From the NCBI GenBank assembly GCA_900317325.1, contig ONGE01000026.1, forward strand, positions 1 through 36,299: DNA of 36,299 nt, in the 5' to 3' direction. This document shows, one piece after another, positions 145 through 18,836 of the stretch. The DNA is from an uncultured Prevotellaceae bacterium. Its GTDB lineage: Bacteria; Bacteroidota; Bacteroidia; Bacteroidales; Muribaculaceae. Below the pieces are notes generated by a model, which was not told where the DNA came from, did no database searches, and was given only the letters and a program-made list of their open reading frames with translations. The number at the start of each line of letters is the position of its first letter. Within the stretch, counting starts at the first letter, position 1. The position numbers were made by a program, and so were the translations under genes.

Positions 145-201
145 GCGGATGCCTCTCTAATCACTAATCACTAATCTCTAACCTGCTCGCGTCAGCGAGC
201 A
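145..201 (+). repeat. Composite interspersed repeat, copy 1
   Basis: Three parts in order: GCGGATGCC (145-153), four degenerate heptamers close to CACTAAT (155-182), and a hairpin with stem TGCTCGC/GCGAGCA and a 4-nt loop (184-201). The same parts occur in inverse order at 18635-18691, which marks it as an element rather than chance. Confidence 0.75.
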
Positions 202-302
202 TAATAACCTCTAATTTGCGAGCAGTGCGAGTATTTTTTTGGTTAAATAATGTTAAATATTGTGAATGATGATATTGTTCGAGGGGGTTTCACACATTAA
301 AT

Positions 303-334
303 ATTGCGTGTATGCGATAAAAAGAGTACTTTTG
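303..334 (+). promoter_or_regulatory. Promoter of the rimP-nusA-infB-folK operon
   Basis: TACTTTTG at 327-334 matches the Bacteroidetes -7 consensus TAnnTTTG exactly. ATTG at 303-306 is a one-mismatch -33 box with a 20-bp spacer. This predicts a leader of about 125 nt before rimP. Confidence 0.7.
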
Positions 335-463
335 CGCCAGCATTCGTGAGAGGGGGCATCGGGCTTCCTCGTTTTTATTATAATTTGAGTTGCCGATTGG
401 CGTGTTTCGGGCCTTGTGACCTGCATGAATGACGATTGGTGACCCATTAAATGAGAATATAGA

Positions 464-931
464 ATGATTGACAAGACGGAACTGGAAAAAGTGATTAACG
501 GGGCGCTTGAAGGCACCAATATGTATCTTGTCACCCTCAAGGTGAGCAAGGACAACGTGATTGATGTGGCTCTGGACAGTGACGAGGACATCACCATCGA
601 CGATTGCATCGCTGTCAACGATGCGGTGCTCGCAGCATTTGACCGCGACGAGGGTGAGGACTATGAGTTGACCGTGGGTTCCTACGGCATCACGTCGCCG
701 CTGCTGCTGCCTCGCCAGTACCGCAAGAATATCGGTTATGAGGTCGAGGTGCTGACAGCCGACGGGCGTAAGCTCAAGGGCGTCATCGCCGACGCCGATG
801 ACGAGGGCTTCGTCCTGACCATGACCGTTAAACGCAAGCTGGAGGGCAAGAAACGCCCCGAGCTGGTGGAGGAGCAAGAGCGCTTCAATTACAGTGACAT
901 CAAACAAACTAAAAATATCATCAAAATCTAG
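464..931 (+). CDS. rimP: Ribosome maturation factor RimP
   Basis: RimP binds the free 30S subunit in the cytoplasm and assists late assembly. The 155 residues fit the family length. The N-terminal alpha/beta domain (about 1-75) includes the D-E-D-I-T-I-D-D segment and the helix that follows. The C-terminal SH3-like beta barrel (about 85-150) starts after the S-P-L-L-L-P-R-Q-Y motif, equivalent to the family's 'SPGL-R-L' stretch. It is first in an operon with nusA and infB, the conserved bacterial order. The ATG at 464 is the first in frame after the promoter; no Shine-Dalgarno sequence is seen, as is normal for this phylum. The last residues are lysine/isoleucine-rich and AT-rich. Confidence 0.95.
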   Translation: MIDKTELEKVINGALEGTNMYLVTLKVSKDNVIDVALDSDEDITIDDCIAVNDAVLAAFDRDEGEDYELTVGSYGITSPLLLPRQYRKNIGYEVEVLTADGRKLKGVIADADDEGFVLTMTVKRKLEGKKRPELVEEQERFNYSDIKQTKNIIKI

Positions 932-936
932 CTTTT

Positions 937-1008
937 GCGATTAGCGATGAGCAACAGGCCGGCATTATCGACGGCCGACAGCTAACGGCTAACAGGTAAT
1001 GGCTAAAG
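937..1008 (+). repeat. Heptamer arrays in the rimP-nusA gap
   Basis: Two degenerate heptamer arrays fill most of the 89-nt gap: three units close to GCGATKA (937-957) and four units close to GCTAACG (981-1008), separated by a short GGCC-containing inverted repeat (about 957-977). They lie inside an operon, so they are transcribed. Confidence 0.7.
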
Positions 1009-1020
1009 ACAAAAAAGATT

Positions 1021-2271
1021 ATGGCTAAAAGAGAAGAAGCGGTCAACATGACCGAGCAGTTTGCCGAGTTTAAGGAACTCAAGGACATCGACAAGACGAC
1101 ATTGATCAGCGTGCTCGAGGAGTCTTTCCGCAGCGTGCTGTCCAAGATGTTCGGCAACGACGACAACTTTGACGTGATCGTGAACCCCGACAAGGGTGAC
1201 TGTGAGATCTATCAGAATCTGGAGGTCGTGGAAGATGGTGAGGTGGAGAACCCCAACAAGCAGATCTCGCTGAGTGACGCTCAGGCCGATGACGACCCCG
1301 ACTGTGAGGTGGGCGAGGAGCACACCCGCAAGATCGACTTCGCCAAGTTCGGCCGTCGTGCGATCCTGAACCTGCGCCAGACGCTGGCCAGCAAGATTCT
1401 GGACCTGCAGAAGGATGCCATCTACAACAAGTTCAAGGCCCTTGAAGGTCAGCTGGTTGCCGGTGAGGTCTATCAAGTGTGGAAGCGCGAGGTGCTGCTG
1501 CTCGACGATGACAAGAACGAGCTGCTGCTTCCCAAGGAGGAGCAGATTCCTACCGACATCTACCGCAAGGGCGATGTGGTGCGTGCCGTGATCGAGAAGG
1601 TGGACAACACCAACAACAATCCCAAGATCATCGTTTCGCGTACCAGCCAGAACTTCCTGCGCCGCCTGTTCGAGCAGGAGGTGCCCGAGATTCACGACGG
1701 CCTGATTGTCATCCGCGCCGTGGCCCGCATTCCGGGTGAACGTGCCAAGATCGCCGTCGAGAGCTATGATGACCGCATCGACCCCGTCGGCGCCTGCGTG
1801 GGTGTGAAGGGAGCCCGCATCCATGGCATCGTGCGCGAGCTGCGCAACGAGAACATCGACGTGATCAACTACACGACCAACTCCCAGCTGCTCATCCAGC
1901 GCGCGCTGAGCCCCGCCAAGATCTCGTCGATCCGCATGGACGAGGAGAACAAGCACGTCGAGGTGTTCCTGCGCCCCGAGGAGGTGTCGCTGGCCATCGG
2001 TAAGGGCGGCTTGAACATCAAGCTGGCAAGCATTCTTACCGGTTACAGCATCGACGTTTACCGCGATGTGGAGACCGAGGAGGACATCTACCTGGATGAG
2101 TTCAAGGACGAGGTTGACGAGTGGGTTATCGAAGCCCTCAAGAACGTGGGTCTGGCCACTGCCAAGTCGGTGCTGCGCACGCCGCGTCAGGACCTCATCG
2201 ACCGTGCCGACCTGGAGGAGGACACGGTGGACAACCTGTTGAACATCCTGCGTGCCGAGTTTGAGGAGTAA
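1021..2271 (+). CDS. nusA: Transcription termination/antitermination factor NusA
   Basis: NusA binds RNA polymerase and nascent RNA and modulates pausing, termination and antitermination. The 416-residue protein has the RNA-polymerase-binding N-terminal domain (about 1-125), an S1 domain (about 140-200), and two KH domains with GxxG loops in G-V-K-G-A-R-I and G-K-G-G-L-N-I (about 205-350). A short acidic helix-hairpin tail (360-416) follows; the duplicated acidic repeats of the 495-residue E. coli protein are absent, as in other Bacteroidetes. The start at 1021 gives M-A-K-R-E-E, which fits the family N-terminus. An ATG at 999 is out of frame and lies in the heptamer array. Confidence 0.97.
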
Positions 2272-2387
2272 TCGACCTGCGGCACAATATTGAAAGCGAG
2301 TTAATTCATCAATTACATCTCACCGACAAAAACAAAAATATCAGCCGAAAGCATATTGCCGAAAGCGAACCGATAAAAAACAACATA

Positions 2388-5195
2388 ATGGCGATAAAAA
2401 TCAGTAAAGTCATCAAAGACCTGAACGTGGGTAGGCAGACCATTGAGGAATTCCTTCACAAGAAGGGCATCGAAATCAGCGCGAACATCAACGCGAAGAT
2501 CGAGGACGATGTCTATGAGATGCTTGTCAAGGAGTTCAAGCCCGACATGGACCTCAAGAGCAAGTCGGACAAAATGGCCACCGAGCGGCAGAAGGAGAAA
2601 GCCAAGCAGATTGCTGCGGCCAAGGAGTCTCACGAAATCAAGACAGTCATCCCTGGTCAGAAACCTAAAGTGCTGGGGAAGATTGACCTTGAGGCTGCCG
2701 GCAAACCTAAGCCGGTAGTCAAGCCCGAGCCTGCTCCCGAAGTCATCGAGGAGAAGCCTGCCGAACCCAAGGTTGAGGAAAAGCCGGCCGAGCAGACGGT
2801 CGAGCAACCCAAGGTGGTCAAGGAGAAGCCCGAACCCGAAGTTGTGGCAGAAACCACCACTCCGGCCCAGGAGCCTGCTCCCGAGCCTGTCGTTGCAGTT
2901 GAGCCCGAGCCGCAAGAGGAGGTTCCTGCCCCCGCCGAGGAGGTCAGCGACAGCGCCGAGGGTGGCGACGAAGTGTTCAAGCCGGTATCCGAGAGCGTGA
3001 GCGGCCCGCAACTCAAGGTCGTGGGCAAGGTCGATCTCACCTCGCTCAACCAGCAGACGCGTCCCCGCAAGAAGAGCAAGGAGGAGAAACGCAACGAGCG
3101 TATCGCCAAGGCTCAGGCCGAGGGAGGCAAGCGCAAGCGCAAACGCATCGGCAAGGAGAAGGTGGATATCGAGAGCGCCGGCAACCAGACTGCATCGCAG
3201 CAGGGTAAGAACCGCGGCGGTAACAAGGATGACCAGGGCGGCAAGCGCAACAAGGACAAGAAGGGCAACCGCAAGCCCCTGCGTCCCGAAGTGAGCGAGG
3301 AGGATGTTCAGCGCCAGATGAAGGAGACGCTGGCCCGTCTGACCGCCAAGAGCAACAAGAAAGCCGCTGCAACCCGTCGTCGCGAGAAGCGCGAGGAACA
3401 CCGTGAGGAGGCCCGCGAGGAGGCCGCACTGGCAGCAGCTCAGAGCAAGACGCTGAAACTCACCGAGTTTGTTACGGCCAATGACTTGGCTATGATGATG
3501 AACGTGCCCATCAACAAGGTTATCGCCACTTGTATGAATCTGGGCGTGATGGTGAGCATCAACCAGCGTCTCGATGCCGAGACCATCAATATCGTGGCCG
3601 ACGAATTCGGCTTCAAGACCGAATACACCAGTGCCGAGGTTGCCGAGGCCATCAGCGAGGAGGAAGACCGTCCCGAAGACCTCGTTCAGCGTTCTCCCGT
3701 GGTTACCGTCATGGGCCATGTGGATCACGGTAAGACGTCGTTGCTGGACTACATCCGCAACTCTAACGTGATTGCCGGTGAGGCCGGTGGTATTACCCAG
3801 CACATCGGTGCCTACAACGTGAAGTTGGCCAACGGCCGTCGCATCACGTTCCTGGACACTCCTGGTCACGAGGCGTTCACCGCCATGCGTGCCCGCGGTG
3901 CCAAGGTGACCGATATCGTTATCGTCATTGTCGCTGCCGACGACAGCGTCATGCCCCAGACCATCGAGGCGCTCAATCACGCATCGGCGGCTGGTGTGCC
4001 CATCATCTTCGCTATCAACAAGATTGACAAGCCGAGCGCCAATCCCGAGAAAATCAAGGAGGAGCTCGCCAATCTTAACTACCTGGTCGAAGACTGGGGC
4101 GGCAAATACCAGAGCCAGGATATCTCGGCCAAGAAGGGTATCGGCGTGGAAGAACTGATGGAGAAGGTGCTGCTCGAGGCCGATATGCTTGACCTCAAGG
4201 CCAACCCCAACCGCAAGGCCACGGGTTCCATCATCGAGTCGTCGCTCGACAAGGGCCGCGGCTACATCGCTACTGTGCTGGTCGACAACGGCACCCTGCA
4301 TGTGGGTGACATTGTGCTGGCCGGTACCCACTTCGGTAAGGTGAAGGCCATGTTCAACGAGCGCAACGTGCGCATCGATGAGAGCGGTCCTTCGACCCCG
4401 GCTTTGATTCTGGGTCTGAACGGTGCTCCCACGGCAGGTGACAAGTTTAATGTGATGGACACCGACCAGGAGGCCCGCCAGATTGCCAACAAGCGCGAGC
4501 AGCTCCAGCGCGAGCAGAGCCGCCGCACCCAGCATCGTGTGAGCCTCGAGGACATCGGTCGTCGTCGCGCGCTGGGTGAGTTCCATGAGCTCAACTGTAT
4601 CGTCAAGGGTGATGTGGACGGCTCGATCGAGGCCCTGAGCGACTCGCTCATCAAACTCTCGACCCCCGAGGTTCAAGTCAATGTCATCCACAAGGCTGTG
4701 GGTGCCATCACCGAGAGCGACGTTACCCTGGCAGCAGCCAGCGACGCCTACATCATCGGTTTCCAGGTGCGTCCGTCGGCTTCGGCCAAGCGCGCCGCCG
4801 AGCAGGAGGGTGTGGACATCCGTTTGTATTCCATCATCTATGACGCCATCGAGGAGGTCAAGAGTGCTATGGAAGGTATGCTCCAGCCCGACATCAAGGA
4901 GGAGGTTACCGGCAGCGCCGAGGTGCGCCAGGTTTACCACATCAGCAAGGTGGGCACCATCGCCGGCGCCATGGTTGTCGAGGGCAAGATCAAGCGTGGC
5001 AGCAAGGTGCGCGTGATTCGCGACGGTATTGTTATCCACACTGGCGAACTGGCCTCGCTCAAGCGCTTCAAGGATGATGCCAAGGAGGTTACCAGCGGCT
5101 TTGACTGCGGTTTGAGCCTCAAGTCGTTCAACGACCTGCAAGAGATGGACATCATCGAGGCCTTTGAGGAAATCGAGGTTCACAAGACCTTGTAA
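2388..5195 (+). CDS. infB: Translation initiation factor IF-2
   Basis: IF-2 is the GTPase that places initiator tRNA in the P site and promotes subunit joining. The 935 residues begin with an IF2 N-terminal module (about 1-60), then a long Pro/Glu-rich and then Lys/Arg-rich linker (about 65-350) typical of Bacteroidetes IF-2. A second IF2_N fold (about 357-415) precedes the GTP-binding domain. P-loop GHVDHGKT is at 443-450, followed by DTPGHEAF, the NKID specificity motif and SAKKG. Domains II, III and IV follow to the C-terminus. It lies 116 nt after nusA; that gap contains repeated CCGAAAGC words but no clear promoter. folK follows after 3 nt. Confidence 0.98.
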
Positions 5196-5198
5196 AAG

Positions 5199-5666
5199 AT
5201 GAAATATTACCTGAATATAGGTAGTAACATGGGCGAACGGCGCGATAACCTCTATCGCGCCGTCGTTGCATTAGTGGCGGGGAACAGCGAATGCGCTGTC
5301 TCGAGCATTGTCGAGAGTGAGCCGTGGGGTTTCGAGAGTGAGCACCGTTTCATGAATCTGGGGATGAGTCTGGAAAGTGACCTGGAACCCCTGCAGATGC
5401 TCGACCGCATCCACGATATCGAGCGCGGCCTGGGCAGTGCGTCTCACCGCGACGAGCACGGCGGCTACATCGACCGCCTGGTGGACATCGATATCGTCGC
5501 CATCGACGATATGGTCATTGACAAGCCCGAGTTGCAGGTGCCGCACCCGCATCTGCCCGAGCGCGACTTCTTTCTCAAGCCCATGATGCAGCTGGCCCCT
5601 GAATGGCGGCACCCTGTTACAGGCCTTACCGCCGCCCAGATGCTGGAAGCGATGAATGATCGTTAG
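5199..5666 (+). CDS. folK: 2-Amino-4-hydroxy-6-hydroxymethyldihydropteridine pyrophosphokinase (HPPK)
   Basis: HPPK transfers pyrophosphate from ATP to 6-hydroxymethyl-7,8-dihydropterin, the step before dihydropteroate synthesis in the folate pathway. The 155 residues fit a monofunctional enzyme. Visible marks are the N-terminal L-N-I-G-S-N-M-G motif, E-S-E-P-W-G-F, the R-x-x-D-I-D-I metal-binding segment (around 93-99) and the P-H-P-x-L-P-x-R-x-F substrate loop (about 113-122). It starts only 3 nt after the infB stop, so it is probably translated by reinitiation or coupling in the same operon. Its end lies 6 nt from the end of the convergent AraC-type gene, with no terminator visible between them. 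Confidence 0.95.
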   Translation: MKYYLNIGSNMGERRDNLYRAVVALVAGNSECAVSSIVESEPWGFESEHRFMNLGMSLESDLEPLQMLDRIHDIERGLGSASHRDEHGGYIDRLVDIDIVAIDDMVIDKPELQVPHPHLPERDFFLKPMMQLAPEWRHPVTGLTAAQMLEAMNDR

Positions 5667-5672
5667 GGAAGA

Positions 5673-6566
5673 CTATTTGCCGTAGTTGTTGGCCTTGCGA
5701 TAGTTGTTGGGAGAAAGTCCCAAGTGCTTTTTAACGTATTTACCGAAGAATGACAGGTTGTCGAATCCCATTTCGGCAGCCACTTCCTTGATGCCCAGGT
5801 CGCTGTAGAGCAGCAGTTGCTTGATGCGGCTGATGACGGCGGTGGCGATGAGTTCGCTGGGCGTGTAGTCGCTGTGCTTGCGGCACACGCTGGTCAGGTA
5901 TTTGGGAGAAACACACAGTTCGTTGGCATAGGACTTGACACTGCGGTTCGCATTGGTGTTCTCGGCCAGCATGAGCATGAAGCGGCGGAAGATGCGGTCA
6001 CCCTGGCGCAGCATGTCGTCGCCGTCCTTATTGAGGTGCTGATTGATGTTGGACAACAGGTCATAGGCAAAGCAGCGGATGATGTCCCTCATCGTCTCCC
6101 GGCCGAAGTTCATCTCGGGGTGATCCATCTTGAAGACGAGCAGGTCGTAGTACTTGACCATCAGGTCGATATCGTCTTGACCCATCTTGATGACAGGGTT
6201 AGAAAGGATGTGCATCACCGACTTCATCAGACTCTTGTTGATGAACGAGAAGCCGATATCGGTGCTCATGGCGCAGATCAGGCATCGGAAGTCGTCGCTG
6301 TGGCTCACGTTATCGATAACCATCTTGCGGTCGACGATGAGCGAACTGTTCTTGTCCAGGTGATAGGGGACGGCATTGAGTTCCAGCGACAAAGACCCCT
6401 CAAGCACCATGACATAGGCGATGAAATTGACTTTGAACTGTTTCATCAGCCCGGGGATGGACGTGATGTTGTCGGCGAAGTAGATCTCGCCGTCATTGTA
6501 CTTCAGGTTGTGGTACACCTGCGGAACGTCGTGCAGGTCCAATTCGGTGACTTTGTTCTGTTTCAT
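5673..6566 (-). CDS. AraC-family transcriptional regulator
   Basis: A 297-residue DNA-binding regulator. The N-terminal half (about 15-150) has a cupin-like beta-rich pattern of a ligand-sensing domain. The C-terminal 100 residues hold two helix-turn-helix motifs: A-N-E-L-C-V-S-P-K-Y-L near 215, and I-K-E-V-A-A-E-M-G-F followed by S-F-F-G-K-Y-V-K-K-H-L-G-L-S-P near 260-290, the AraC family signature. The gene is convergent with folK. Its target and inducer cannot be read from the sequence; the lipoprotein gene on the other side of the spacer is the nearest divergent candidate. Confidence 0.92.
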   Translation of the reverse strand: MKQNKVTELDLHDVPQVYHNLKYNDGEIYFADNITSIPGLMKQFKVNFIAYVMVLEGSLSLELNAVPYHLDKNSSLIVDRKMVIDNVSHSDDFRCLICAMSTDIGFSFINKSLMKSVMHILSNPVIKMGQDDIDLMVKYYDLLVFKMDHPEMNFGRETMRDIIRCFAYDLLSNINQHLNKDGDDMLRQGDRIFRRFMLMLAENTNANRSVKSYANELCVSPKYLTSVCRKHSDYTPSELIATAVISRIKQLLLYSDLGIKEVAAEMGFDNLSFFGKYVKKHLGLSPNNYRKANNYGK

Positions 6567-6586
6567 GTTGTCCGCATTTATGACTG

Positions 6587-6618
6587 CGAAGTTACCACCT
6601 TTTTCTCATAATAGCAAG
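6587..6618 (-). promoter_or_regulatory. Probable promoter of the AraC-family gene
   Basis: On the minus strand TAACTTCG (6587-6594) is one mismatch from TAnnTTTG, and CTTG (6615-6618) is one mismatch from TTTG with a 20-bp spacer. It would give a leader of about 15-20 nt. Confidence 0.5.
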
Positions 6619-6733
6619 CCCACACAAGCCCACGCGCAAAAGAAAGCCCGATGAATGATTGTTTTATAACCATTAAACTGAATAATGATATTGATTTGTG
6701 CCGGTTTGCGGTAATACTGTAGAAAAAATGAAT

Positions 6734-6741
6734 TAAATTTG
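6734..6741 (+). promoter_or_regulatory. Possible -7 element for the lipoprotein gene
   Basis: TAAATTTG matches the -7 consensus, but the nearest TTTG upstream (6705-6708) is 25 bp away, longer than the usual 19-20 bp. If used, the leader would be close to 195 nt. Confidence 0.35.
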
Positions 6742-6940
6742 CATCGTCATAAGACCTGATGGGGCTATTGACAGACATAATAGAAAGCGCGATATCGATA
6801 TACTGGAAATGTGGACCTGGACATTGAGTCATTCACATGACGGTGTGGAGATTAGGTGGCTCCGTTTGTCTTTTATGTCTTGATAATCTTGCTAGCAAGC
6901 TGCATCGTGGAGCCATAGATGCCATTTAAAGATTAGAATT

Positions 6941-7432: not shown

Positions 7433-7512
7433 TCATCTCGGGATTGTCGGCAAGCGCCCGGTTGGCCATTTTAGGGAGAGGCCGTTTGCTGACATGATGG
7501 ATGACAAATGAA

Positions 7513-7544
7513 AAGCGGCGATCGGATTATTCCGGTCGCCGCTT
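7513..7544 (-). terminator. Intrinsic terminator of tRNA-Pro
   Basis: A 13-bp GC-rich stem with one mismatch (7513-7525 with 7532-7544) and a 6-nt loop lies 8 nt beyond the 3' end of the tRNA on the minus strand and is followed there by TTTTCATTTG. It may also help end the lipoprotein transcript on the plus strand, but T residues are few in that direction. Confidence 0.7.
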
Positions 7545-7551
7545 GCTTGAG

Positions 7552-7625: not shown

Positions 7626-7643
7626 AATCTCATTTGAGCGCGG

Positions 7644-7675
7644 CAAAGGTACTGCTTTTTTTTTAACTGAGCAAA
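7644..7675 (-). promoter_or_regulatory. Promoter of tRNA-Pro
   Basis: On the minus strand TTTG (7672-7675), a 20-bp spacer and TACCTTTG (7644-7651) match the Bacteroidetes consensus without a mismatch. The -7 box ends 19 bp before the tRNA 5' end, so the tRNA has its own promoter. Confidence 0.8.
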
Positions 7676-7688: not shown

Positions 7689-7769
7689 TATTTGAGTGGG
7701 ATGGATGGAGAGGACGGAATGGAGCGGTGATGTGGGGGGGTGTACGGGCTGCTTCATGGAGGTTTTTAG

Positions 7770-7966
7770 CGAGCCGGAGGCTCGCAATACATCGACGTGG
7801 GTTGCGGGGGCTTTTTTACGAGCCGGTGGCTCGCAATACATCGACGGGAGTGCGGGGGCTTTTTTACGAGCCGGTGGCTCGCAATACATCGACGGGAGTT
7901 GCGGGGACTTTTTTACGAGCCGGTGGCTCGCACTACCGGGACGGGGAGGGCGGGGGCGGTTTTTTA
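7770..7966. repeat. 48/49-bp tandem repeat, four copies
   Basis: Copies start at 7770, 7819, 7867 and 7916. Each contains the palindrome CGAGCCGGTGGCTCG, then CAATACATCGACG, a G-rich stretch and a run of five or six T. The fourth copy is degenerate in its second half. Each unit could form a small hairpin. Frames reading through it are artefacts of the repeat. Confidence 0.9.
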
Positions 7967-11026: not shown

Positions 11027-11033
11027 CACTCTA

Positions 11034-12011
11034 ATGGCAATCACGTTAGAACATATTCATGAGCAGTTGCGCCCAGAACTGGACGCGATGAACACTATCA
11101 TCATCTCGACGTTGACGAGCGACAGCGAGTTGACTAATAACATCGTAACCAATTATCTCAAGATCAAGGGCAAGTTGCTGCGGCCCATCGTGACGCTGTT
11201 GTGCTCCAAATTCTTTGGCGGCATCAACGACAAGGCATTGCAGGCGGCTGCCGCGCTGGAGATGTTGCACAATGCCTCGCTCATTCACGATGATGTCATC
11301 GACGATGCCACCGAGCGCCGTGGGCTGCCCACCATCAACAATGTGTGGAGCAACCATGTGGCCGTGCTCGTGGGCGACTTCTTTGTCACCGGCGCGTTGC
11401 GCTGTGGCGTGGCAACCGGCGACGGTCGCATCCTGAGTGCGCTGGCCGATATGGGTCGTGACTTGTCGCTGGGCGAGATTGACCAGGTGGACATCGCCCG
11501 CAACCGCAACATCGACGAGGCCACCTATATGGAGATTATCCGCGCCAAGACGGCATCGCTCTTTGAGTGCTGTGCTGCGGTGGGCGGCTATGCCAACGAC
11601 GCTCCCCAGACCATCATCGACGAGTTGCGCCGTTATGCGCGTCTGCTGGGCATCTGCTTCCAGATCAAGGACGACACGTTCGACTACTACAACGATCCCA
11701 TCATCGGCAAGCCCACGGGTAACGACCTGCGTGAAGGCAAGGTGACGTTGCCGCTGATTTACGCTTTGCGTCGCACCGATATGCCCGAGTGTGACGAGAT
11801 GCTGGCTCTGGTCAAGAAAGAGGAGCTCACCCGCGAGGACATCGACCGCCTGATTGACTTCGCCAAGCGTGCCGGCGGCATCGAGTATGCCTACGAGACG
11901 ATGGAGCGCCTGCGTGCCGAGGCCAACGACGTGCTGTCGCCTTATTCGCCCCACGAGACCGTGGATCAGTTGCGAGAAATCTTTGACTACGTGATCGAGC
12001 GTAGGTTATAG
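11034..12011 (+). CDS. All-trans polyprenyl diphosphate synthase
   Basis: This enzyme extends farnesyl or geranylgeranyl diphosphate with isopentenyl diphosphate; in Bacteroidales the long product is used for the menaquinone side chain. The 325-residue protein has the first aspartate-rich motif D-D-V-I-D at 86-90 followed by R-R-G, and the second at 212-216 (D-D-T-F-D), plus the G-K-x-x-R-P segment near 46-51 for diphosphate binding. Small residues before the first motif (A-S-L) suggest a long product of roughly C35-C50; the exact length cannot be read. It is divergent from polA and probably co-transcribed with rnhB, 43 nt downstream. Confidence 0.93.
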
Positions 12012-12012
12012 C

Positions 12013-12039
12013 GGCTATAGTGACTATAGTGGCTATAGT
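12013..12039 (+). repeat. Nonamer array between the polyprenyl synthase gene and rnhB
   Basis: Three copies of a 9-nt unit GRCTATAGT follow the stop codon directly (the stop itself is in the partial unit TTATAG). They fill most of the 43-nt intercistronic gap. Confidence 0.8.
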
Positions 12040-12054
12040 GTTTCATTTCAAGGC

Positions 12055-12660
12055 ATGTTGCAGAGTTTTTTGATAGCGGGACGTGTCGAGGCCGGTTGTG
12101 ACGAGGCTGGTCGAGGCTGCCTTGCCGGACCCGTGACTGCCGCTGCCGTCATACTGCCTCCCGACTTCCACAACGACTTGATCAACGACAGCAAGCAGCT
12201 CACCGAGCGTCAGCGCGAGCAGTTGCGACCCGTCATCGAGCGCGAGGCTGTGGCCTGGGCCGTGGCGATGGTCTCTCCTGAGGAGATTGACCGCATCAAC
12301 ATCCTGCGCGCCTCGATCACGGCGATGCATCGCGCCCTGGACCAGTTGAGCGTGCGCCCCGAGGGCATCCTCGTTGACGGCAACCGTTTTTTCCCTTACC
12401 ATGACATTCCCCACACAACCATCGTCAAGGGCGACGGCAAGATGCTGAGCATCGCCGCTGCCTCGATTCTTGCCAAGACGCATCGTGACGAGTTGATGCG
12501 CCGCCTGGACGAGGAATATCCGCAATATGGCTGGGCGCGCAACAAGGGCTATCCCACGCCCGACCACCGTGCCGCCATCGCCCAATATGGTGCCACGCCT
12601 TATCACCGCCACACCTTCCAATTGCTGCCGCAGCCGTCGCTGTTCGACGATCTGGACTGA
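12055..12660 (+). CDS. rnhB: Ribonuclease HII
   Basis: RNase HII cuts the RNA strand of RNA-DNA hybrids and single ribonucleotides in DNA. The 201-residue protein has the signature D-E-A-G-R-G at 16-21 (catalytic Asp16 and Glu17), the third acidic residue Asp108 in I-L-V-D-G, and Asp145 in K-T-H-R-D-E-L-M. The C-terminal H-R-x-x-F segment (about 184-188) is followed by QPSLF at 193-197, a clamp-binding-like motif. The protein ends D-D-L-D. A diverged second copy of this 3' end lies 196 bp downstream, so the present end may come from recombination. It is probably in an operon with the polyprenyl synthase gene. Confidence 0.95.
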
Positions 12661-12662
12661 GG

Positions 12663-12767
12663 TGCTCGCTGGCGCGAGCAGTGGATTTCGCTCGCGTTGC
12701 TCGCGGTGGAGGTGCTCGCTGGCGCGAGCAGGGTGTAGGGTGTATAGAGTATGGTGTAGAGTGTAGA
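12663..12767 (+). repeat. Two GCTCGC hairpins and a heptamer array after rnhB
   Basis: Identical hairpins TGCTCGC-TGGC-GCGAGCA stand at 12663-12680 and 12713-12730, with further CTCGCG words between. Five degenerate heptamers close to GTGTAGA follow at 12733-12767. This is the insert that separates the functional rnhB end from its displaced copy. Confidence 0.75.
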
Positions 12768-12792
12768 GGAGGCGTCTGCGTTGTAGGGCCTC

Positions 12793-12880
12793 GCCTTATT
12801 ATCGTCACACCTTCCAACTGCTGCCGCAACCGTCGCTGTTCGACGATCTCCAGGTCAATCAATCGGTTGAATTGGACTAA
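12793..12880 (+). pseudogene. Displaced duplicate of the rnhB 3' end
   Basis: Positions 12793-12850 repeat 12597-12654 at an offset of 196 bp with five differences in about 58 bp. In the rnhB frame they encode the same [15 protein letters not shown] peptide. Four substitutions are silent; the other (two changes in one codon) gives His to Tyr. The frame then runs V-N-Q-S-V-E-L-D to a TAA at 12878-12880, a different tail from the present gene. It has no start and is not likely translated. Confidence 0.75.
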
Positions 12881-12902
12881 TTGGTCTGATTAGTCTAATT
12901 GG
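12867..12902 (+). repeat. Nonamer array over the end of the displaced rnhB copy
   Basis: Four degenerate 9-nt units close to TCTAATTGG. The second unit carries the TAA stop of the displaced rnhB reading frame. Confidence 0.7.
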
Positions 12903-12911
12903 TTAAAGAAA

Positions 12912-12948
12912 AAAAAGCAGGAACCCAAACAACGGGTTCCTGCTTTTT
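12912..12948. terminator. Bidirectional intrinsic terminator between rnhB and the dockerin gene
   Basis: A perfect 15-bp stem (12912-12926 with 12934-12948) with a 7-nt loop, A-rich on the left and ending in TTTTT on the right. It can end both the plus-strand rnhB transcript and the minus-strand transcript of the secreted protein gene at 12990. Confidence 0.9.
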
Positions 12949-12989
12949 AGGTTGTAACACTAGTGTCGTGTTACTGTTTCAAGATCTCA

Positions 12990-15086
12990 TTACTGAGCCA
13001 TTACCTTGTTGATCAGCATGGTAACATCGGTGATGTTGATGATGTTGTCACCGTTCAAATCAGCATTGGTAGTGTTGATATTAGCGAAGTTCTCGGTCAT
13101 AACAGCACTGATCAGGGTGGTAACGTCGGTGATGTTCACAACGTTGTCGTTGTTCACGTCGCCAACCAAGCCAGCAGCCTGAGCCTCGGTGATAGCGATG
13201 GGCATAATCTGTACGGCATTGTTGTAGTAGCTTACCATACCCTCAACATCGAAGGTCTTGCCCTCGAGCTCGGTGGGATACTCGATACCGAACTGGTTGT
13301 AGATGGCCATACCGTCAGCGGTGTAGAGATACTTGGGATCATTGCCAGCGGTCAGGGTCAGACCCTTAACCAGTACGCGCTCGTTGATCTTGGTGGTGTC
13401 GATAGCAGCCTCGGTATACTCGGTGGGAACGATCTCAACGAGCTCGGCATCGGTAGCAACGAGGTCAGCGGGATACTGATACTCGTTGATGTGCTTGCGG
13501 AACAGGTGGTACTGTGCAGTCCACTCCTCGTCAAGGGTAGCACCCTCCTGGAACTCACCAACCTCGTGGCCGTAAATCAGACCATAGGCAGTGTTGTCCT
13601 TAACATACAGGTAACCACCATTCTGGTAAACAACTACTACGTTGCCGTAGAAGACGAAGTCCTTGTAATCCTGCAGGGCGTTGGCCTCGGCAAGGGTCGA
13701 AACCTCAGCGCGCTTGTAGTACTTGGCGGTAACAACGGCACTCTGTACACCCTCGAGCTCGGCATAAGCCTTAACTACGGTAGAGTCCTCGGTTACAGTG
13801 AAGGGAGCAGTGTAGAGCTGATAGCCACCATCGTTGATGTCGTAGTAAATCTGAGCACCAGCGGTCTCGCAGGAGATACTAACAACCTGGCTACCGGTAA
13901 AGCCGGTGGTACCCGGGTTGAACACGGGATCAGCAACTACGATTTCAGGCTGGTTGGGCTCGTCACCTGCTACATAGACGATGATCTCGCGAGCACGGCA
14001 CTGCTTGCCCGAAGCGGTGAATGTAACTTCGGATGCGTTGCCAATCCAAGTAGCGTTAATGCCTTCGTAAGTCAGACCCTGGTTAGTGCCGAAGGCAATC
14101 TCAGGAGAATAGTCAGCGCTGACCTCAGAACCGATGAACTCAATCTTCACGATTTTACCGTGGGTGGTCGAGAACTTGATGTTGGCATCCTTAAAGATGC
14201 GGTACTCATGGTACTCGGTAGAATTCTGAGTGTAGTTCGAGATGCGGCCATTGCTCACCTTGAAGGTGACGCGATCCTTGGTGATGGTGTATGCACCCTG
14301 AGTAGCGCCTTCGGTGTTGTAACCGGGAAGGGTATCGGCAGTTACATCGAAGTCGTAAGCGTAATCATAAGCACCAGGCTTGGTAAAGGAAACGTAGGTC
14401 GTGTCGCTGTTGTCCATGCCATTCTTGTAAGCATAGGCAGCATAAGTCGAAGTCTCAGTTACATAGAAAGTACCCTCGGTAACACCATTGCTGGGGAAGA
14501 AGTCACTTACATACTCGAACTCGCCGTCAACAACCTGATAGAGCTGGATCGAAGAGTTCTCGGTAGCGCAGCTGACTGTTACAGCGGTGCTCTCCTGAGT
14601 AAGAAGGCCACCATTGGGGTTGAACACGGGAGCATCAACCTTGGGAGTAATAGGAGTTCCGTCATTCAGAGTAACGGCAATGCCGGCAATGCGGCGGTGC
14701 TTGCTGGTACCACCTACGGTGAAGGTTACCTCGTTGGCAGAGCCGGTCCACTTGGGCTCGGAATAGCCTGCAGGGTCGCTGGTGATAGCGTTGGTGTTGT
14801 CACCGGTACCAAAGGTGAACTCAATGGCAACAATGGTCTGATCAGCAGATACGGTGATGGTACCGCCGGCATAAACACGAACGGCTTGGCCAGTGGTGTA
14901 CCATGCAGGAGCGTTTGAGCCTGTACCCTTGGCAAAGGCGATCGTCACACCGTTAGCTTCATCATAAACGGAGGTTACTTCTTGAGCATTCTCGTAACCT
15001 GACGTGAAATCGAAGTTAACAGTCGTCTGAGCCCAAGCCGACATGGTCAGCAGGGCTAACGTGAGGAGAGAAAATAATTTCTTCAT
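12990..15086 (-). CDS. Secreted multidomain protein with C-terminal dockerin-like repeats
   Basis: A 698-residue exported protein. Signal peptide 1-19 (M-K-K-L-F then a hydrophobic core ending A-W-A-Q). Two related beta-sandwich modules (about 25-140 and 230-375) share the pattern G-x-I-x-x-I-E-F then W-x-G-x-A-x-x-V-x-F-T and R-x-x-x-I-x-V. Chitobiase/Fn3-associated-like stretches beginning P-V-F-N-P-x-x-G lie near 150-225 and 385-455. A putative OB-like module (about 460-630) starts L-A-E-A-N-A-L. The C-terminus has two calcium-binding-type repeats, G-D-V-N-N-D-N-V-V-N-I-T-D-V-T and A-D-L-N-G-D-N-I-I-N-I-T-D-V-T (to 698), as in dockerin type I. No enzyme motif is seen; a surface adhesin or glycan-binding role is inference. 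Confidence 0.88.
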   Translation of the reverse strand: MKKLFSLLTLALLTMSAWAQTTVNFDFTSGYENAQEVTSVYDEANGVTIAFAKGTGSNAPAWYTTGQAVRVYAGGTITVSADQTIVAIEFTFGTGDNTNAITSDPAGYSEPKWTGSANEVTFTVGGTSKHRRIAGIAVTLNDGTPITPKVDAPVFNPNGGLLTQESTAVTVSCATENSSIQLYQVVDGEFEYVSDFFPSNGVTEGTFYVTETSTYAAYAYKNGMDNSDTTYVSFTKPGAYDYAYDFDVTADTLPGYNTEGATQGAYTITKDRVTFKVSNGRISNYTQNSTEYHEYRIFKDANIKFSTTHGKIVKIEFIGSEVSADYSPEIAFGTNQGLTYEGINATWIGNASEVTFTASGKQCRAREIIVYVAGDEPNQPEIVVADPVFNPGTTGFTGSQVVSISCETAGAQIYYDINDGGYQLYTAPFTVTEDSTVVKAYAELEGVQSAVVTAKYYKRAEVSTLAEANALQDYKDFVFYGNVVVVYQNGGYLYVKDNTAYGLIYGHEVGEFQEGATLDEEWTAQYHLFRKHINEYQYPADLVATDAELVEIVPTEYTEAAIDTTKINERVLVKGLTLTAGNDPKYLYTADGMAIYNQFGIEYPTELEGKTFDVEGMVSYYNNAVQIMPIAITEAQAAGLVGDVNNDNVVNITDVTTLISAVMTENFANINTTNADLNGDNIINITDVTMLINKVMAQ

Positions 15087-15181
15087 AAAAACTTGAATAA
15101 ATTAGAAGTTAATGAAATATGTTAATAAACAAAAAATGTTCATTTTTAGCGCTTTATGTTAGCGAGGTCCATTTCACGCTG

Positions 15182-15213
15182 CAAAGGTAGTCATATTAAA
15201 TAGAATGTGCAAC
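15182..15213 (-). promoter_or_regulatory. Promoter of the dockerin-type protein gene
   Basis: On the minus strand TACCTTTG (15182-15189) is a perfect -7 box and GTTG (15210-15213) is one mismatch from TTTG with a 20-bp spacer. The leader would be about 90 nt. Confidence 0.75.
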
Positions 15214-15280
15214 ACTTTTAAGCGAAAAACGAAAAACTATACCATTGGGGTGATGCCCCCACGCGAAGGCGAGACCCTAC

Positions 15281-15316
15281 AAAAACAGGGAGGCGACCCG
15301 CACTGGGGTCGCCTCC
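15281..15316 (-). terminator. Terminator of the 937-residue secreted protein gene
   Basis: An 11-bp perfect stem GGAGGCGACCC (15289-15299) with GGGTCGCCTCC (15306-15316), loop of 6 nt, then CTGTTTTTG on the minus strand, about 35 nt after the stop codon. Confidence 0.85.
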
Positions 15317-15349
15317 GTTGAGGTATGACAGTTGTTGACTGTTAGTGGC

Positions 15350-18163
15350 TTACTTGATCACCTTGGTGGTGCGAACGGTGCCGTCGCTGTAGCGGGTGAT
15401 AACGATGTTCAGGCCGTTGAAGGGCTTGTCGCTCTTGATACCCTGAGCGTTGACATAGGTCTTGCTCACCTCGTTGGCGACATTGATCTCGTTAACGCTG
15501 GTGGGGATGTTGGTCCACTCGAGGGTCGACTCAACCACATAGTACATCTGGTCGTTGGTCTCTTCGGCCCTGTTGTTGTCAACCTTCTTGTAGTAAACGC
15601 GCACGAGGAACTTGATCTGGGTGTTGGCCAGAGCGCCGAATCCCAGGAGATCCCACTCGTCACCGATGGTGATGGAGTAGTCGTTGGTGATTTCCTCGAT
15701 GATGAGCTCCTTGGCGTTGCGCGGTGCGGTAGGATCGTTGACGGGGATGTTGTTGGCATTCATGGTGTAGCCGCGAACGTCGTCACAGAGTCTCCACACG
15801 CGGTACATGTAGGGCTCATAGTCCACGTTGGCCTCGGTGGGCGGGATCATGTTGACGTTGATGGTGGGATTATAGATGACGCACTTCTTGTTGTTCTCGT
15901 CTAACCACTCACCGTTGACGGTCGAACTCTTGGTACCGGTCACATGTCCGCTGATGCCAGCCACACCGCTCTTCCAGATGGGGCTACCGTAGCTGTTCTC
16001 GCCGTCATGGTTCACGCGGTCGGTGCCGAAGGACCAGATCACGGGCACATAGGAAGCGAAGTCGTTGTAATCGCCGGTGAGCACTATGTTGTCGAACAGG
16101 TAGTGGTCGCCCTCATTATAAATCTCACCCATGTGACCTAGGCGGTTGTTCATCTCCCTGAAGGTACCGTCGGTGCGGCGCTGCAGCCTAGAAATGGTAT
16201 CGGTGGGAGCGGCATTGTCACCACGCTGGATGGTGTAGTAGTAGATGGCGGGGTTGTTGACCAGCGGCATCTCGATAAGGGCATTCTTCACGCCGGGCAG
16301 CAGCTCGGGCTCGGTGTCGGCCATGATCTCCTCGAGGGTGTAGAAGCCGTCGATGGTCGAAGCGGTCTTGAGCACGGGAACCTCGACAGTGTTGGTGCCC
16401 TTGTCGCTGTCGTTGAGCAGCAGCACGTAGCCGTAGAGGCTGGGATGCTCGTTGGTGGCCGTCGACTCGTTGAACTGGTCAACGAAGAGGATGCTCGACA
16501 GGTCGATGGCGTTGTTGGCGCCAGTGTTCAGGCCACCGCTGGTGGTAATGGGCACGTTGTAGCCGGCCAGGGGCTCCTGGTTCTCATACTCGATGTTGTA
16601 GAACACACCGCCGAAGGTTGCAGCAACCGAGAGGTTGAGCTGAGCAACGGGGATCATCACGTCGGGGTTAGCGGTGTCGAAGCGGTAGAGCGTGAACTCG
16701 TTCTCACCGGCCTGTACGCGCTCGGTGGTGAGTGCGTTGAGCATGTCCTCGTTCTTCAGTGACAGGAAGTTGCGGTAGTAGTTCATCTCCTCGGCGGGCA
16801 CGAAGTCGCTCTCGTAGTGGTCGCCCACCAGACCCAGGAAGTCGTTGGTGCCGGGGATAATCACGTCATCGATATTGCTCCAAGCCTCGAAGGCATCGTT
16901 CTCGGTGGCATAGCCGTGCACGATGTAGTTGATCGTGTAGCTGTGCTCTTCCTGAGGCACCTGATAGGTGTAGGTGGTCTCGGTGGTGTTGGTCAGCAAC
17001 TGGTAGGACTGGTTACCGAACTCGTCGGTAATGACGATATAGACGGTGTAGGTCTGGGGCACCTCGCTCTTGACAATGGTGTTGAGGGACGAGGTCCAGT
17101 CGAGGGTTACGTCGTAGGTCAGCTCTTGATCGGCGGGAGCGGCGTTGGCATCGAGAAGGATGGTGTACATACCTACCTCGGGCTGGTGGCTCGGGCTGTA
17201 GTTACGCTGATTATAGACACCACGGTTGTCAGGAATAAAGATAATCATGCCGGTCATCGACTTCTCCTCGGTGCTGTTCTTGCCGGCCATCGAGAAGTAG
17301 TGCTCGAAGTGTATTACTGATGTACAGTCGTGGATAACGGGATAAACCTCACCCTCGTTCATCTTCTCATAGAAGTCGTTGATGGTGGCACCAGTGTCGT
17401 TTGTGGTGGGGCTGTACTCCTCAAACATGTTGTAGAAGGGAGCATAGGGTGCGCCAGCATAAGCCTCACTATCTTGTTGGGGTGGGCAATAGTAGGTCTT
17501 ACCCTTACCGATGATGAAGAAGCGGTTAAACTCACCCTCAATGTTGAACATCGTACCCTGGTTGTTGCCGCTACCGACGCGCATGCCGTCGGTGAGCAAC
17601 TTGATGGACTGGATGTTGTTCCTGAAGTAGGTAATCAGGTCGCTCTTGCTCTCGGTTCTTGTACCAGGAGCGGTGGCGTAGTTTTTCAGCTTCACCAGGA
17701 ACAGGGTGTGGCCGTCCTCGTTGGGGGCGGTCACATCGGTAATGCCCCATCCCGGATCAGTCTTGGTGTAGGAGTAGAAAAGCAAGCCATGCCTAGTATA
17801 ATAGAACTGCTCACCATAGTAAACAGACGAGTTAGTGAAGCCGCTGTGCTTGATGCCAGGGATCTCGGGGTTGGTGTAAACCCACTTGAGCATGTCAAAC
17901 ATCTGATAGGGATCGGTCACCTCGTCCACCAGGCTGGCGGTCTGAGTCTGACCATTGGCGTTGGTCCAAGTGTAGGTCTTGGCTGCATACCAATCATAGT
18001 CATGGGTGGCTTCAGAGGCCCTCATGGGGGCATTCAGCGTAGGGGAAGCTGAATTGGGGAAGAAAAAGCCCTCATCCTTTACCTGACCCTGTGCGATGGC
18101 ACTGGTTCCTAGCAACAACATCGCAGCTGCCAGAAACATGAAATTGTTTTTAGTCTTTTTCAT
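15350..18163 (-). CDS. Large secreted protein with sorting-type C-terminus (fused form of the paralogue pair)
   Basis: A 937-residue exported protein with a signal peptide (about 1-25, ending S-A-I-A-Q). The N-terminal half (about 50-530) matches the 705-residue protein at 22551: W-Y-A-A-K-T-Y-T-W, D-P-Y-Q-M-F, T-D-G-M-R-V-G, H-Y-F-S-M-A-G-K, F-I-P-D-N-R-G and L-D-W-T-S-S-L-N are shared. The C-terminal half (about 560-937) matches the end of the 1184-residue protein: F-V-D-x-F, Y-V-P-V-I-W, N-S-Y-G-S-P-x-W. The last 40 residues (S-K-T-Y-V-N-A-Q-G ... Y-S-D-G ... T-T-K-V-I-K) resemble a type A sorting domain of the type IX secretion system. No catalytic motif is recognised; it is probably a cell-surface protein. 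Confidence 0.85.
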   Translation of the reverse strand: MKKTKNNFMFLAAAMLLLGTSAIAQGQVKDEGFFFPNSASPTLNAPMRASEATHDYDWYAAKTYTWTNANGQTQTASLVDEVTDPYQMFDMLKWVYTNPEIPGIKHSGFTNSSVYYGEQFYYTRHGLLFYSYTKTDPGWGITDVTAPNEDGHTLFLVKLKNYATAPGTRTESKSDLITYFRNNIQSIKLLTDGMRVGSGNNQGTMFNIEGEFNRFFIIGKGKTYYCPPQQDSEAYAGAPYAPFYNMFEEYSPTTNDTGATINDFYEKMNEGEVYPVIHDCTSVIHFEHYFSMAGKNSTEEKSMTGMIIFIPDNRGVYNQRNYSPSHQPEVGMYTILLDANAAPADQELTYDVTLDWTSSLNTIVKSEVPQTYTVYIVITDEFGNQSYQLLTNTTETTYTYQVPQEEHSYTINYIVHGYATENDAFEAWSNIDDVIIPGTNDFLGLVGDHYESDFVPAEEMNYYRNFLSLKNEDMLNALTTERVQAGENEFTLYRFDTANPDVMIPVAQLNLSVAATFGGVFYNIEYENQEPLAGYNVPITTSGGLNTGANNAIDLSSILFVDQFNESTATNEHPSLYGYVLLLNDSDKGTNTVEVPVLKTASTIDGFYTLEEIMADTEPELLPGVKNALIEMPLVNNPAIYYYTIQRGDNAAPTDTISRLQRRTDGTFREMNNRLGHMGEIYNEGDHYLFDNIVLTGDYNDFASYVPVIWSFGTDRVNHDGENSYGSPIWKSGVAGISGHVTGTKSSTVNGEWLDENNKKCVIYNPTINVNMIPPTEANVDYEPYMYRVWRLCDDVRGYTMNANNIPVNDPTAPRNAKELIIEEITNDYSITIGDEWDLLGFGALANTQIKFLVRVYYKKVDNNRAEETNDQMYYVVESTLEWTNIPTSVNEINVANEVSKTYVNAQGIKSDKPFNGLNIVITRYSDGTVRTTKVIK

Positions 18164-18334
18164 AATACTTGGGTGTTAAAAAGTTAGTAATTAAATAATG
18201 TATAGTACCAGCTTGTGTATTTGCTTGTTGTATCCTGTGGGATTTCGTTTTTTCAAGGATAGCTATGGTGGGGTTCAACCTTGGTTATGGTGAGTGCTAT
18301 TAAGAAAAAAAGAAATCACTTTGATATTTCGCTA

Positions 18335-18365
18335 CAAAAGTAATGCTAAATTTTTAAACAGCAAA
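18335..18365 (-). promoter_or_regulatory. Promoter of the 937-residue secreted protein gene
   Basis: On the minus strand TTTG (18362-18365), a 19-bp spacer and TACTTTTG (18335-18342) match the Bacteroidetes consensus exactly. The leader is about 165 nt. Confidence 0.85.
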
Positions 18366-18412
18366 ATTTTTTCATGATTTTAGTTTGAGATTTTAAGTTG
18401 GAGGATTACGAT

Positions 18413-18630
18413 AAAACTACGGATTACGCTTTTTGAAACTACGGATTACTCTGATTGAACTGATTTTGGCATCCGCGTTCATATTGAAACTACGGATTAT
18501 TCTGATTGAACTGATTTTGGCATCCGCGTTCAAATTGAAACTACGGATTATTCTGATTGAACTGATTTTGGCATCCGCGTTCATATTGAAACTACGAATT
18601 ACTCTGATTGAACTGATTTTGGCATCCGCA
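18413..18630. repeat. 51-bp tandem repeat, four copies plus a partial one
   Basis: Units start at 18435, 18486, 18537 and 18588, exactly 51 bp apart, with a partial unit from about 18413. Each runs from GAAACTACGGATTA through CTGATTGAACTGATTTTGG to GCATCCGCGTTC. Copies are almost identical, so the array is young or kept uniform. The period is a multiple of three, which creates a 79-codon frame of 17-residue repeats that I do not accept as a gene. Confidence 0.92.
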
Positions 18631-18634
18631 GGGA

Positions 18635-18691
18635 TGCTCGCTGGCGCGAGCAGACCAGTGATTAGTGATTAGTGATTAGTGAGGCATCCGC
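18635..18691 (-). repeat. Composite interspersed repeat, copy 2 (inverse orientation)
   Basis: Hairpin TGCTCGC-TGGC-GCGAGCA (18635-18652), four heptamers AGTGATT (18657-18684) and GGCATCCGC (18683-18691). Read on the minus strand this is the same order as at 145-201. It is joined to the 51-bp array through the shared GCATCCGC block. Confidence 0.8.
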
Positions 18692-18778
18692 GAACGGACT
18701 CCACGCAAAGGCGCGAAGACGCTAAGAATTTTTAGGATTGCTCGTTTGGGCTCGCAAGAAATCAAAAAAACGTTTTAT

Positions 18779-18836
18779 GCCATCCGAGTTCATTAACCCT
18801 TAACCTTTAACCTTTAATCTGCGAGCGCCAGCGAGC
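18779..18836 (+). repeat. Composite interspersed repeat, variant copy
   Basis: GCCATCCGAG (18779-18788), four heptamers close to TTAACCT (18793-18820), then GCGAGC-GCCA-GCGAGC (18821-18836). Here the two arms are direct rather than inverted, unlike copies 1 and 2. Confidence 0.7.

What the first reader, a model, noticed from the sequence alone, without database searches (positions are those of the whole stretch)
145..18836. Composite interspersed repeat: GCATCCGC block, heptamer array and GCTCGC hairpin
At 145-201 (plus) and 18635-18691 (minus) the same three parts occur in the same order: GCGGATGCC, three to four heptamers CACTAAT, and the hairpin TGCTCGC-N4-GCGAGCA. Partial versions are at 12663-12767, 18779-18836, 25163-25198 and 26307-26344. 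Opposite orientations and partial copies suggest a mobilised or gene-converted short element, comparable in idea to REP/RAYT or MITE families, but I do not know one with this build.
Basis: seen in the sequence. Interest (0 to 1): 0.75.

Follow-up and report, generated by a model that had tools for sequence, protein, structure and literature searches.

The report
Heptamer repeats that bracket IVP genes
The scattered short repeats in this rumen bacterium look like loose ends of a small, little-understood genetic element whose only gene is a four-helix-bundle protein known from insertions in ribosomal RNA, which may help explain why seven-base repeats litter so many bacterial genomes.

Summary
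The composite is real: hairpin, heptamer array (TTAGNGA strand), GCATCCGC, in that order (reversed placement 1 and 0 among 63 arrays). It is one face of something larger. Intergenic DNA here is full of 7-nt arrays (220 spaced 4-mer triples, 6.8 expected). Of 41 CTAATC-type arrays, 26 sit within 50 nt after a stop codon, TTAG on the sense strand, many next to a hairpin of locus-specific sequence. The one Y1/RAYT-like gene found carries none of the parts. Another gene does: 23S rRNA-intervening-sequence protein (IVP, PF05635) is bracketed by inverted arrays in 33 of 49 copies in the genus, against 2 of 271 other genes. The heptamer differs between copies, tends to match between flanks, and follows IVP relatedness rather than genome. 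One orthologous gap shows empty, filled and internally deleted states; the deleted one is in this genome. Brackets recur in cyanobacterial plasmids (8 of 14) and more weakly in the phylum (8 of 30). Best reading: IVS-like elements outside rRNA with arrays as ends; scattered arrays and the composite are derivatives. Mobility and mechanism are inferred; I saw no IVP trace inside the window's copies.

The parts
29..62 (+). GCATCCGC...GCGGATGC palindrome upstream of composite 1
145..152 (+). GCGGATGC block of composite 1
154..181 (+). heptamer array, CTAATC(A/T) on + strand (TTAG strand is -)
184..201 (+). hairpin TGCTCGC-GTCA-GCGAGCA of composite 1
12663..12680 (+). hairpin TGCTCGC-TGGC-GCGAGCA
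12713..12730 (+). second hairpin TGCTCGC-TGGC-GCGAGCA, flush with the next array
12730..12768 (+). heptamer array with another unit (GTGTAGG/GTGTAGA); best IVP-flank match in G041, score 19
18635..18652 (-). hairpin TGCTCGC-TGGC-GCGAGCA of composite 2
18657..18682 (-). heptamer array, (GATTAGT)n on + strand
18684..18691 (-). GCATCCGC block of composite 2
18793..18817 (+). inverted partner array (TTAACCT)n
18820..18837 (+). GCGAGC-GCCA-GCGAGC (direct repeat, not a hairpin) at the end of the inverted partner
25171..25201 (+). solo heptamer array GCTAAAA, overlapping the 3' end of a predicted gene on the - strand
26307..26344 (+). heptamers TTTAACC/CTCTAAA followed by GCGAGC-N4-GCGAGC
33963..33990 (.). 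solo heptamer array GTTTAGN (+ strand) between two predicted genes on the - strand

Best explanation
The composite is a derivative of a family of IVS-like elements that live between genes. The full element is: hairpin, heptamer array, IVP gene (PF05635 four-helix bundle), the same array inverted, hairpin. SHOWN: the bracketing; the match of the two flanks; units that follow IVP relatedness; empty, filled and apparently deleted states at one gap. INFERRED: arrays are the element's ends; they settle at the foot of hairpins by gene 3' ends, where stops in all frames and a hairpin make an insert harmless; the hairpin's 3' arm is often an inverse copy of the gene's own end, which could come from hairpin-primed (fold-back) DNA synthesis at insertion; the IVP multimer recognises the array stem; loss of the gene leaves inverted array pairs, single arrays and, with GCATCCGC palindromes picked up, the composite of the finding. 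The enzyme that cuts and copies is unknown and may be the host's.
For: IVP brackets: inverted-flank score >=16 in 33 of 49 loci against 2 of 271 other genes; 32 of 48 own pairs against 7.7% of 2256 mismatched pairs, and 36 of 48 with period-7 flanks. Unit follows IVP: different-site pairs at >=60% protein identity share arrays in 52 of 135, at <50% in 6 of 462, permutation p=0.001; same-genome pairs of different IVPs share arrays in 3 of 22. Orthologous gap before a tRNA gene: 36 nt and no array in G002; IVP between inverted arrays in 12 of 30 loci; in this genome one left unit, the leader with the IVP start codon and the right array, without the ORF (compared by eye with G041). Stem spanning the gene end and running up to the array: 9 of 12 with IVP, 0 of 6 without, 0 of 1 remnant. 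Solo units match an IVP flank of another genome in 28 of 30 (12.0 expected from permuted units). YTAA array load correlates with IVP copies over 41 genomes, rho 0.56. IVP under purifying selection, dN/dS median 0.31 over 77 pairs. Left arm G>C in 34 of 40 brackets. RNA fold of one copy: 31-bp array stem round IVP with hairpins at its foot on both sides, z -10.8. Cyanobacterial plasmids: 8 of 14 at >=14 against 6% of mismatched pairs. One G024 element holds array, GCATCCGC, a GCTCG-type part and a second array before IVP.
Against: I saw no IVP trace inside the window's own composites. IVP copies over the family cut-off number three in this genome, one with a stop, while arrays are far more numerous (24 CTAA triples in 436 kb). 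In the rest of the phylum only 8 of 30 best-scoring IVP genes are bracketed at >=16, and 2 of 30 with period 7. Six of 14 cyanobacterial copies score under 14. The array-IVP correlation is not corrected for phylogeny; IVP copies were found by likeness to one query, and two IVP-free genomes still have 21 and 44 array matches. No target-site duplication was sought; no recombinase is known. At the tRNA gap three filled copies have no gene-end stem, the right array meets the TTCAAGGGG hairpin directly in 8 of 12 only, one copy (G020) has a broken frame, and the unit differs between genomes (GTTTAGA, GTTTAAT, GGTTAGA) with both flanks changing together, which needs re-insertion or conversion. Stable folds also occur 3' of the arrays (20 of 63).
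Confidence: 0.55

Rival explanations
1. The arrays are host features: short tandem repeats kept at gene 3' ends because they put stop codons in every frame next to a terminator hairpin, and spread or renewed by slippage and gene conversion. IVP elements are guests that prefer the loops of array hairpins.
For: 26 of 41 CTAATC-type arrays lie within 50 nt after a predicted stop codon with TTAG on the sense strand, 0 of 41 in the other orientation. The pta-ackA gap holds period-7 arrays in 10 of 30 loci, with different units, most with a stop triplet per unit. Fold <= -8 upstream in 36 of 63 against 17% of 295 controls.
Against: Unit identity follows IVP clade and not genome. Adjacent GATTAGN units differ more than chance (18 same, 52 different, 43% same expected), which is not what fresh slippage gives. 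Some IVP-flank units carry no stop codon (GGAGAAT, GTGTATG). Nine genomes without an IVP match have a median of 2 array matches.
Confidence: 0.3
2. REP/RAYT or another Y1-transposase repeat system.
For: Palindromic parts, intergenic, many copies, both orientations.
Against: Single Y1 gene found; none of the parts at its locus, which carries another repeat, CCTCGAAGAGG-like (read by eye). Hairpin sequence differs from site to site.
Confidence: 0.05
3. A separate MITE family (hairpin-heptamer-GCATCCGC) with its own transposase, whose heptamers merely resemble those round IVP.
For: Inverted pairs with interior REP-like DNA and no IVP trace seen (window 18635-18837; C20:289001 and 289213). GCATCCGC goes with the GCTCGC part (14 of 63 against 5.4 expected).
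Against: Same heptamer unit as the IVP copy at C14; a G024 IVP element contains array, GCATCCGC and a GCTCG-type part.
Confidence: 0.1

Closest known systems
Intervening sequences (IVS) of 23S rRNA with the S23/IVP reading frame (PMC4990558, passages read)
   Same: S23/IVP ORF in the loop of a stem made by its complementary ends; patchy distribution; called selfish, or perhaps a transposition remnant, in that paper
   Different: Here between protein and tRNA genes in the copies whose neighbours were read; ends are tandem heptamer arrays whose unit differs from copy to copy; solo arrays spread over the genome
TAACTGA heptamer repeats of Beggiatoaceae, Cyanobacteria and some Bacteroidetes (PMC4679880, abstract and passages read)
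   Same: Intergenic 7-nt direct repeats, stops in all frames in one orientation, patchy; the paper says no transfer mechanism is evident
   Different: There mostly before start codons and one unit; no link to IVP in the passages seen, and a word search of its main text for S23, four-helix and intervening gave none
GGGNATC heptamer repeats of Xanthomonas and Nostoc (PMC4692102, passages read)
   Same: [quoted passage not shown] it cites a GTGATTA heptamer in Helicobacter pylori, the unit of this window
   Different: Studied there as G-quadruplex repeats; conserved places; no element proposed in the passages seen
BrickBuilt MITE of Porphyromonas gingivalis (PMC4596501, abstract and outline read)
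   Same: Bacteroidales, intergenic, tandem repeat inside an inverted-repeat element
   Different: 23-nt unit within the element, not at its ends; no IVP mentioned in the abstract
REP/RAYT (recalled)
   Same: Dispersed intergenic palindromes
   Different: Needs a Y1 transposase flanked by its repeat; tested, not met

Membership tests
REP/RAYT | linked Y1 transposase whose locus bears the repeat | tested here: not met
   one Y1 gene found; parts absent from its 3.3-kb locus
REP/RAYT | conserved palindrome sequence | tested here: not met
   hairpins beside arrays differ in sequence; GCTCGC-type in 20 of 63
23S rRNA IVS | PF05635 reading frame | tested here: met
   E 6e-37 for L058:9022-9381; this holds for the IVP elements, not for the window's composites
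23S rRNA IVS | complementary ends forming a stem round the ORF | tested here: met
   33 of 49; fold of one copy
23S rRNA IVS | insertion in a 23S rRNA helix | tested here: not met
   copies whose neighbours were read (C14, the tRNA-gene gap, 14 plasmid copies) lie between protein or tRNA genes; the 23S genes of these genomes were not searched
23S rRNA IVS | excision by RNase III | not testable with these tools
   needs RNA work
Heptameric short tandem repeats (STRR/LSSR) | 7-nt direct repeats, intergenic | tested here: met
MITE | inverted ends without transposase gene | tested here: met
   window 18635-18837; remnant in L315; 8 inverted neighbours, one of them the C14 IVP copy
MITE | target-site duplication | not tested
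   only gap sequences compared by eye
MITE | ends shared with an autonomous element | tested here: inconclusive
   array units shared with IVP elements; autonomy of IVP elements unproven

The most novel reading that the evidence does not exclude
IVP/S23 proteins define a widespread class of mobile element without any known recombinase. Its ends are tandem arrays whose heptamer is set by the protein, it inserts at hairpins by fold-back DNA synthesis, and it is the source of the unexplained heptamer repeats of Bacteroidota and Cyanobacteria; rRNA intervening sequences are one special landing place of it.
Probability: 0.35. Interest if true: 0.95.

Novelty: new variant of a known kind. Interest (0 to 1): 0.82.

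Why it matters
Two old puzzles meet: where bacterial heptamer repeats come from, and what the common S23/IVP four-helix-bundle protein does. A link between protein clade and repeat unit makes both directly testable with a small protein and a short nucleic acid.

Tried and rejected
RAYT link: looked for and not found. The reversed-pattern control of the genome search is useless for CTAATCA, because that heptamer array reads the same backwards. Simple slippage as the only source: disfavoured by alternating units. Array as a mere all-frame stop cassette: kept as a rival, since some units lack stops. A bacterial RRM protein as reader of TTAG repeats was an idea; one paper search, listing only, not followed. 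Rfam over the window at gathering threshold found only a tRNA. IVP in phage records: no match with one query. The three more distant PF05635 hits in this genome are under the cut-off and were left out. The two control genes that score >=16 are an acyl-CoA dehydrogenase and an NMN transporter. Literature: eight searches of the open-access library on heptamers or IVP genes listed no paper that I could see to link IVP/S23 genes with heptamer arrays; only listings and the passages named were seen, and most subscription journals are missing.

Dropped rows: one array site of another unit (C17:19461) left out of the 41 sites; L240 (short flank); L226 and L240; four IVP loci (L240, L244, L245, L248) plus those without a period-7 run or under 100 aa (41 loci left of 50); 76 of 820 pairs as same-site or undetermined; 14 of 28 plasmid records fetched, all cyanobacterial; 50 IVP loci taken from the longer match list. 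The bracket threshold is 16; at 16 the cyanobacterial count is 6 of 14 (scores).
Full report
What is in the window. Both composites exist as described: 145-202 on + and 18634-18691 on -, 58 nt, 90% complementary. The second has an inverted partner at 18790-18837, so 18635-18837 is a 200-bp unit with array ends facing each other. Two of the partial 'hairpins' (18820-18837, about 26329-26344) are direct repeats of GCGAGC. At 12713-12768 the same hairpin is flush with another heptamer, GTGTAGG.

More than chance. In 436 kb (the window plus 20 stretches of 20 kb taken at set places; genes by a home-made finder) intergenic 4-mer triples at period 7 number 220, summed over 4-mers and strands, against 6.8 in Markov sequence. 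Periods 5, 6, 8, 10-13 and 15 give 4 to 40. Period 14 gives 80, a multiple of 7, and period 9 gives 146, from a second set of arrays. CTAA/TTAG is the commonest core (24 each). Units seen: CTAATC(A/T), TTAACCT, CTAAACT, TTAGTCC, TTAGGAG, GCTAAAA and others.

Order and place. I read 41 CTAATC-type sites on the TTAG strand, with one site of another unit left out. [quoted passage not shown] in the other orientation none of 41 does. A hairpin often stands just before the array, and its sequence differs: TGCTCGC-N4-GCGAGCA, AGCGCC-N3-GGCGCT, AGCATC-N4-GATGCT, long terminator-like palindromes. Folding energy <= -8 just before the array: 36 of 63 arrays; just after it: 20 of 63; in controls after stop codons: 17% of 295 (TTAA-only arrays were not turned there). 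After the array comes CATCCGC in 17 of 63; GCTCGC-type part and CATCCGC go together in 14 (5.4 expected); reversed placements 1 and 0.

Relatives. In a first draw of 41 genomes, 14 have an exact CTAATCN triple, in 2 of 17 genera. At the rimP gap, sister loci L060-L063 lack arrays, while L064 has GTTTAGA arrays with a GCTCGC-type part. Between the pta stop codon and ackA, 10 of 30 loci score >=10 for period 7 (9 of the 17 nearer ones, 1 of the 13 more distant), with different units: GATTAGN, GGACTAA, TTAGGCN, AGTTAAC, GATAATA. Same place, different heptamer.

The linked gene. Inverted arrays 400 bp apart on contig C14 enclose a 119-aa gene that Pfam calls 23S_rRNA_IVP (E 6e-37). I took 50 IVP loci from genomes of the genus. 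The local inverted match of the 200-nt flanks reaches 16 in 33 of 49, against 2 of 271 other genes of this genome. With 250-nt flanks, own pairs reach 16 in 32 of 48 and mismatched pairs in 7.7% of 2256; 36 of 48 show period 7, at most one any other period from 5 to 12. The heptamers differ: GATTAGN, GTTTAGA, GGATAAT, GTTGACC, AGTCCTT, GGTTAGT and more; where both flanks have an array, the two mostly agree. The left arm is richer in G than C in 34 of 40 brackets, 3 the other way. The opposite-orientation neighbours of this genome have one polarity as well (8 of 8, one of them the C14 copy).

Unit follows protein. Between IVP copies at different sites, array similarity >=14 occurs in 52 of 135 pairs at >=60% protein identity and 6 of 462 at <50%; label permutation gives p=0.001 after a stricter removal of same-site pairs (for the first version). 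Copies of different IVPs in one genome share a unit in 3 of 22 pairs. So the heptamer goes with the protein lineage more than with the genome.

Empty, filled and deleted. The gap between a gene ending in ..FENQKLYM and a convergent tRNA gene with its terminator hairpin was read in 30 loci. G002 has 36 nt there; G042 and G019 are also without arrays; G006 has other DNA ending in a single CTCTAAAC. Twelve genomes hold IVP between inverted arrays, one (G020) with a broken frame. In eight of the 12 the right array meets the TTCAAGGGG terminator hairpin directly, and that hairpin stands also in the empty G002. The more distant loci have other neighbours. This genome (L315, C17 near 248.5 kb) has one left unit, the leader with the IVP start codon as in G041, and the right array, but no ORF: a remnant of the kind the finding is about. 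On the left, 9 of 12 filled alleles have a stem scoring 12 or more that is made of the stop codon, 2 to 13 nt before it and the bases after it, and that runs up to or into the array; 0 of 6 genomes without IVP (two of them without the tRNA marker) and not the remnant. A similar stem stands on contig C14, where the gene end is followed by its own inverse and then the array; the sister G041, without the insert, lacks it.

Wider. Over 41 genomes, YTAANNN four-unit matches (overlapping counts) correlate with IVP copies, rho 0.56, not corrected for kinship; the nine genomes without an IVP match have a median of 2 and a maximum of 44. Of 30 solo arrays in the window and sample, 28 resemble an IVP flank of another genome, against 12.0 with permuted units. 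IVP genes are under purifying selection (dN/dS median 0.31 over 77 pairs, all under 0.5). In the rest of the phylum the bracket is weaker: 8 of the 30 loci fetched (best-scoring genes) at >=16 against 0.34% of 870 mismatched pairs, with period 7 in only 2. In cyanobacterial plasmids 8 of 14 reach 14 (6 reach 16), with units such as AGGGAAC, TTAGCTT and GGGTGTA; three copies lie between cas or cmr genes. Phage records: none.

Mechanism. As RNA the C14 copy folds to a 31-bp array stem with IVP in the loop, an 11-bp hairpin one base before it and a 15-bp hairpin directly after it, z -10.8. The only solved relative by sequence is 2gsc, XCC0516, presumably the Xanthomonas S23 protein that PMC4990558 describes as a homopentamer of four-helix bundles. 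I infer that IVP binds the array stem or duplex, that the element settles at hairpin feet by gene ends, and that the inverse copy of the gene end is made during insertion. None of this is shown. The alternative, that arrays are host features and IVP a guest that prefers them, is kept at 0.3.

Known work. Heptamer repeats and their nearness to stop codons are known (PMC4692102, PMC4679880), as are rRNA IVS with S23 genes (PMC4990558). I found no paper joining the two in eight searches of an open-access library.

Noticed in passing
G000:C29:78390-78728 (L031): Single Y1/RAYT-like gene flanked by another repeat family with CCTCGAAGAGG-like words; pieces like it also stand in the intergenic stretch L052:10827-11352.
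   Followed up: partly
window 12004-12040; L051:7651-7824; L052:4893-4952; L058:17708-17762: A second class of intergenic arrays with 9-nt units (GGCTATAGT, ACGGATAAG, GGTCTAATT); in the ddl gap of some sister species ACGGATAAA units stand as inverted pairs round a terminator-like hairpin.
   Followed up: partly
window 18433-18629: 51-nt tandem repeat, about four copies, each ending in GCATCCGC, directly beside composite 2.
   Followed up: no
window 7758-7945: 48-49-nt tandem repeat with CGAGCCGGTGGCTCG palindromes; similar CGAGCC-GGCTCG words follow pta in G019, G023, G042 and G051.
   Followed up: no
L336, L337, L343: In cyanobacterial plasmids IVP genes sit between cas6 and cas4 (two plasmids) and between cas10/cmr2 and a cmr3-family gene (one).
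   Followed up: no
e.g. G094, G091, G183: Some Bacteroidota genomes hold 14-16 PF05635 matches, a good place to look for recent copies.
   Followed up: no
G000 arrays of GATTAGN: Neighbouring units tend to differ, mostly alternating GATTAGT and GATTAGA (52 of 70 neighbours differ).
   Followed up: partly
L184 (G005), pta-ackA gap: Two TAACTGA units at and after the pta stop codon, the heptamer described in Beggiatoaceae (PMC4679880).
   Followed up: no
window 1-201; ends of contigs C20, C24, C30: Several contigs of this assembly end within or near these repeats, so the assembly may break on them and undercount long copies.
   Followed up: no
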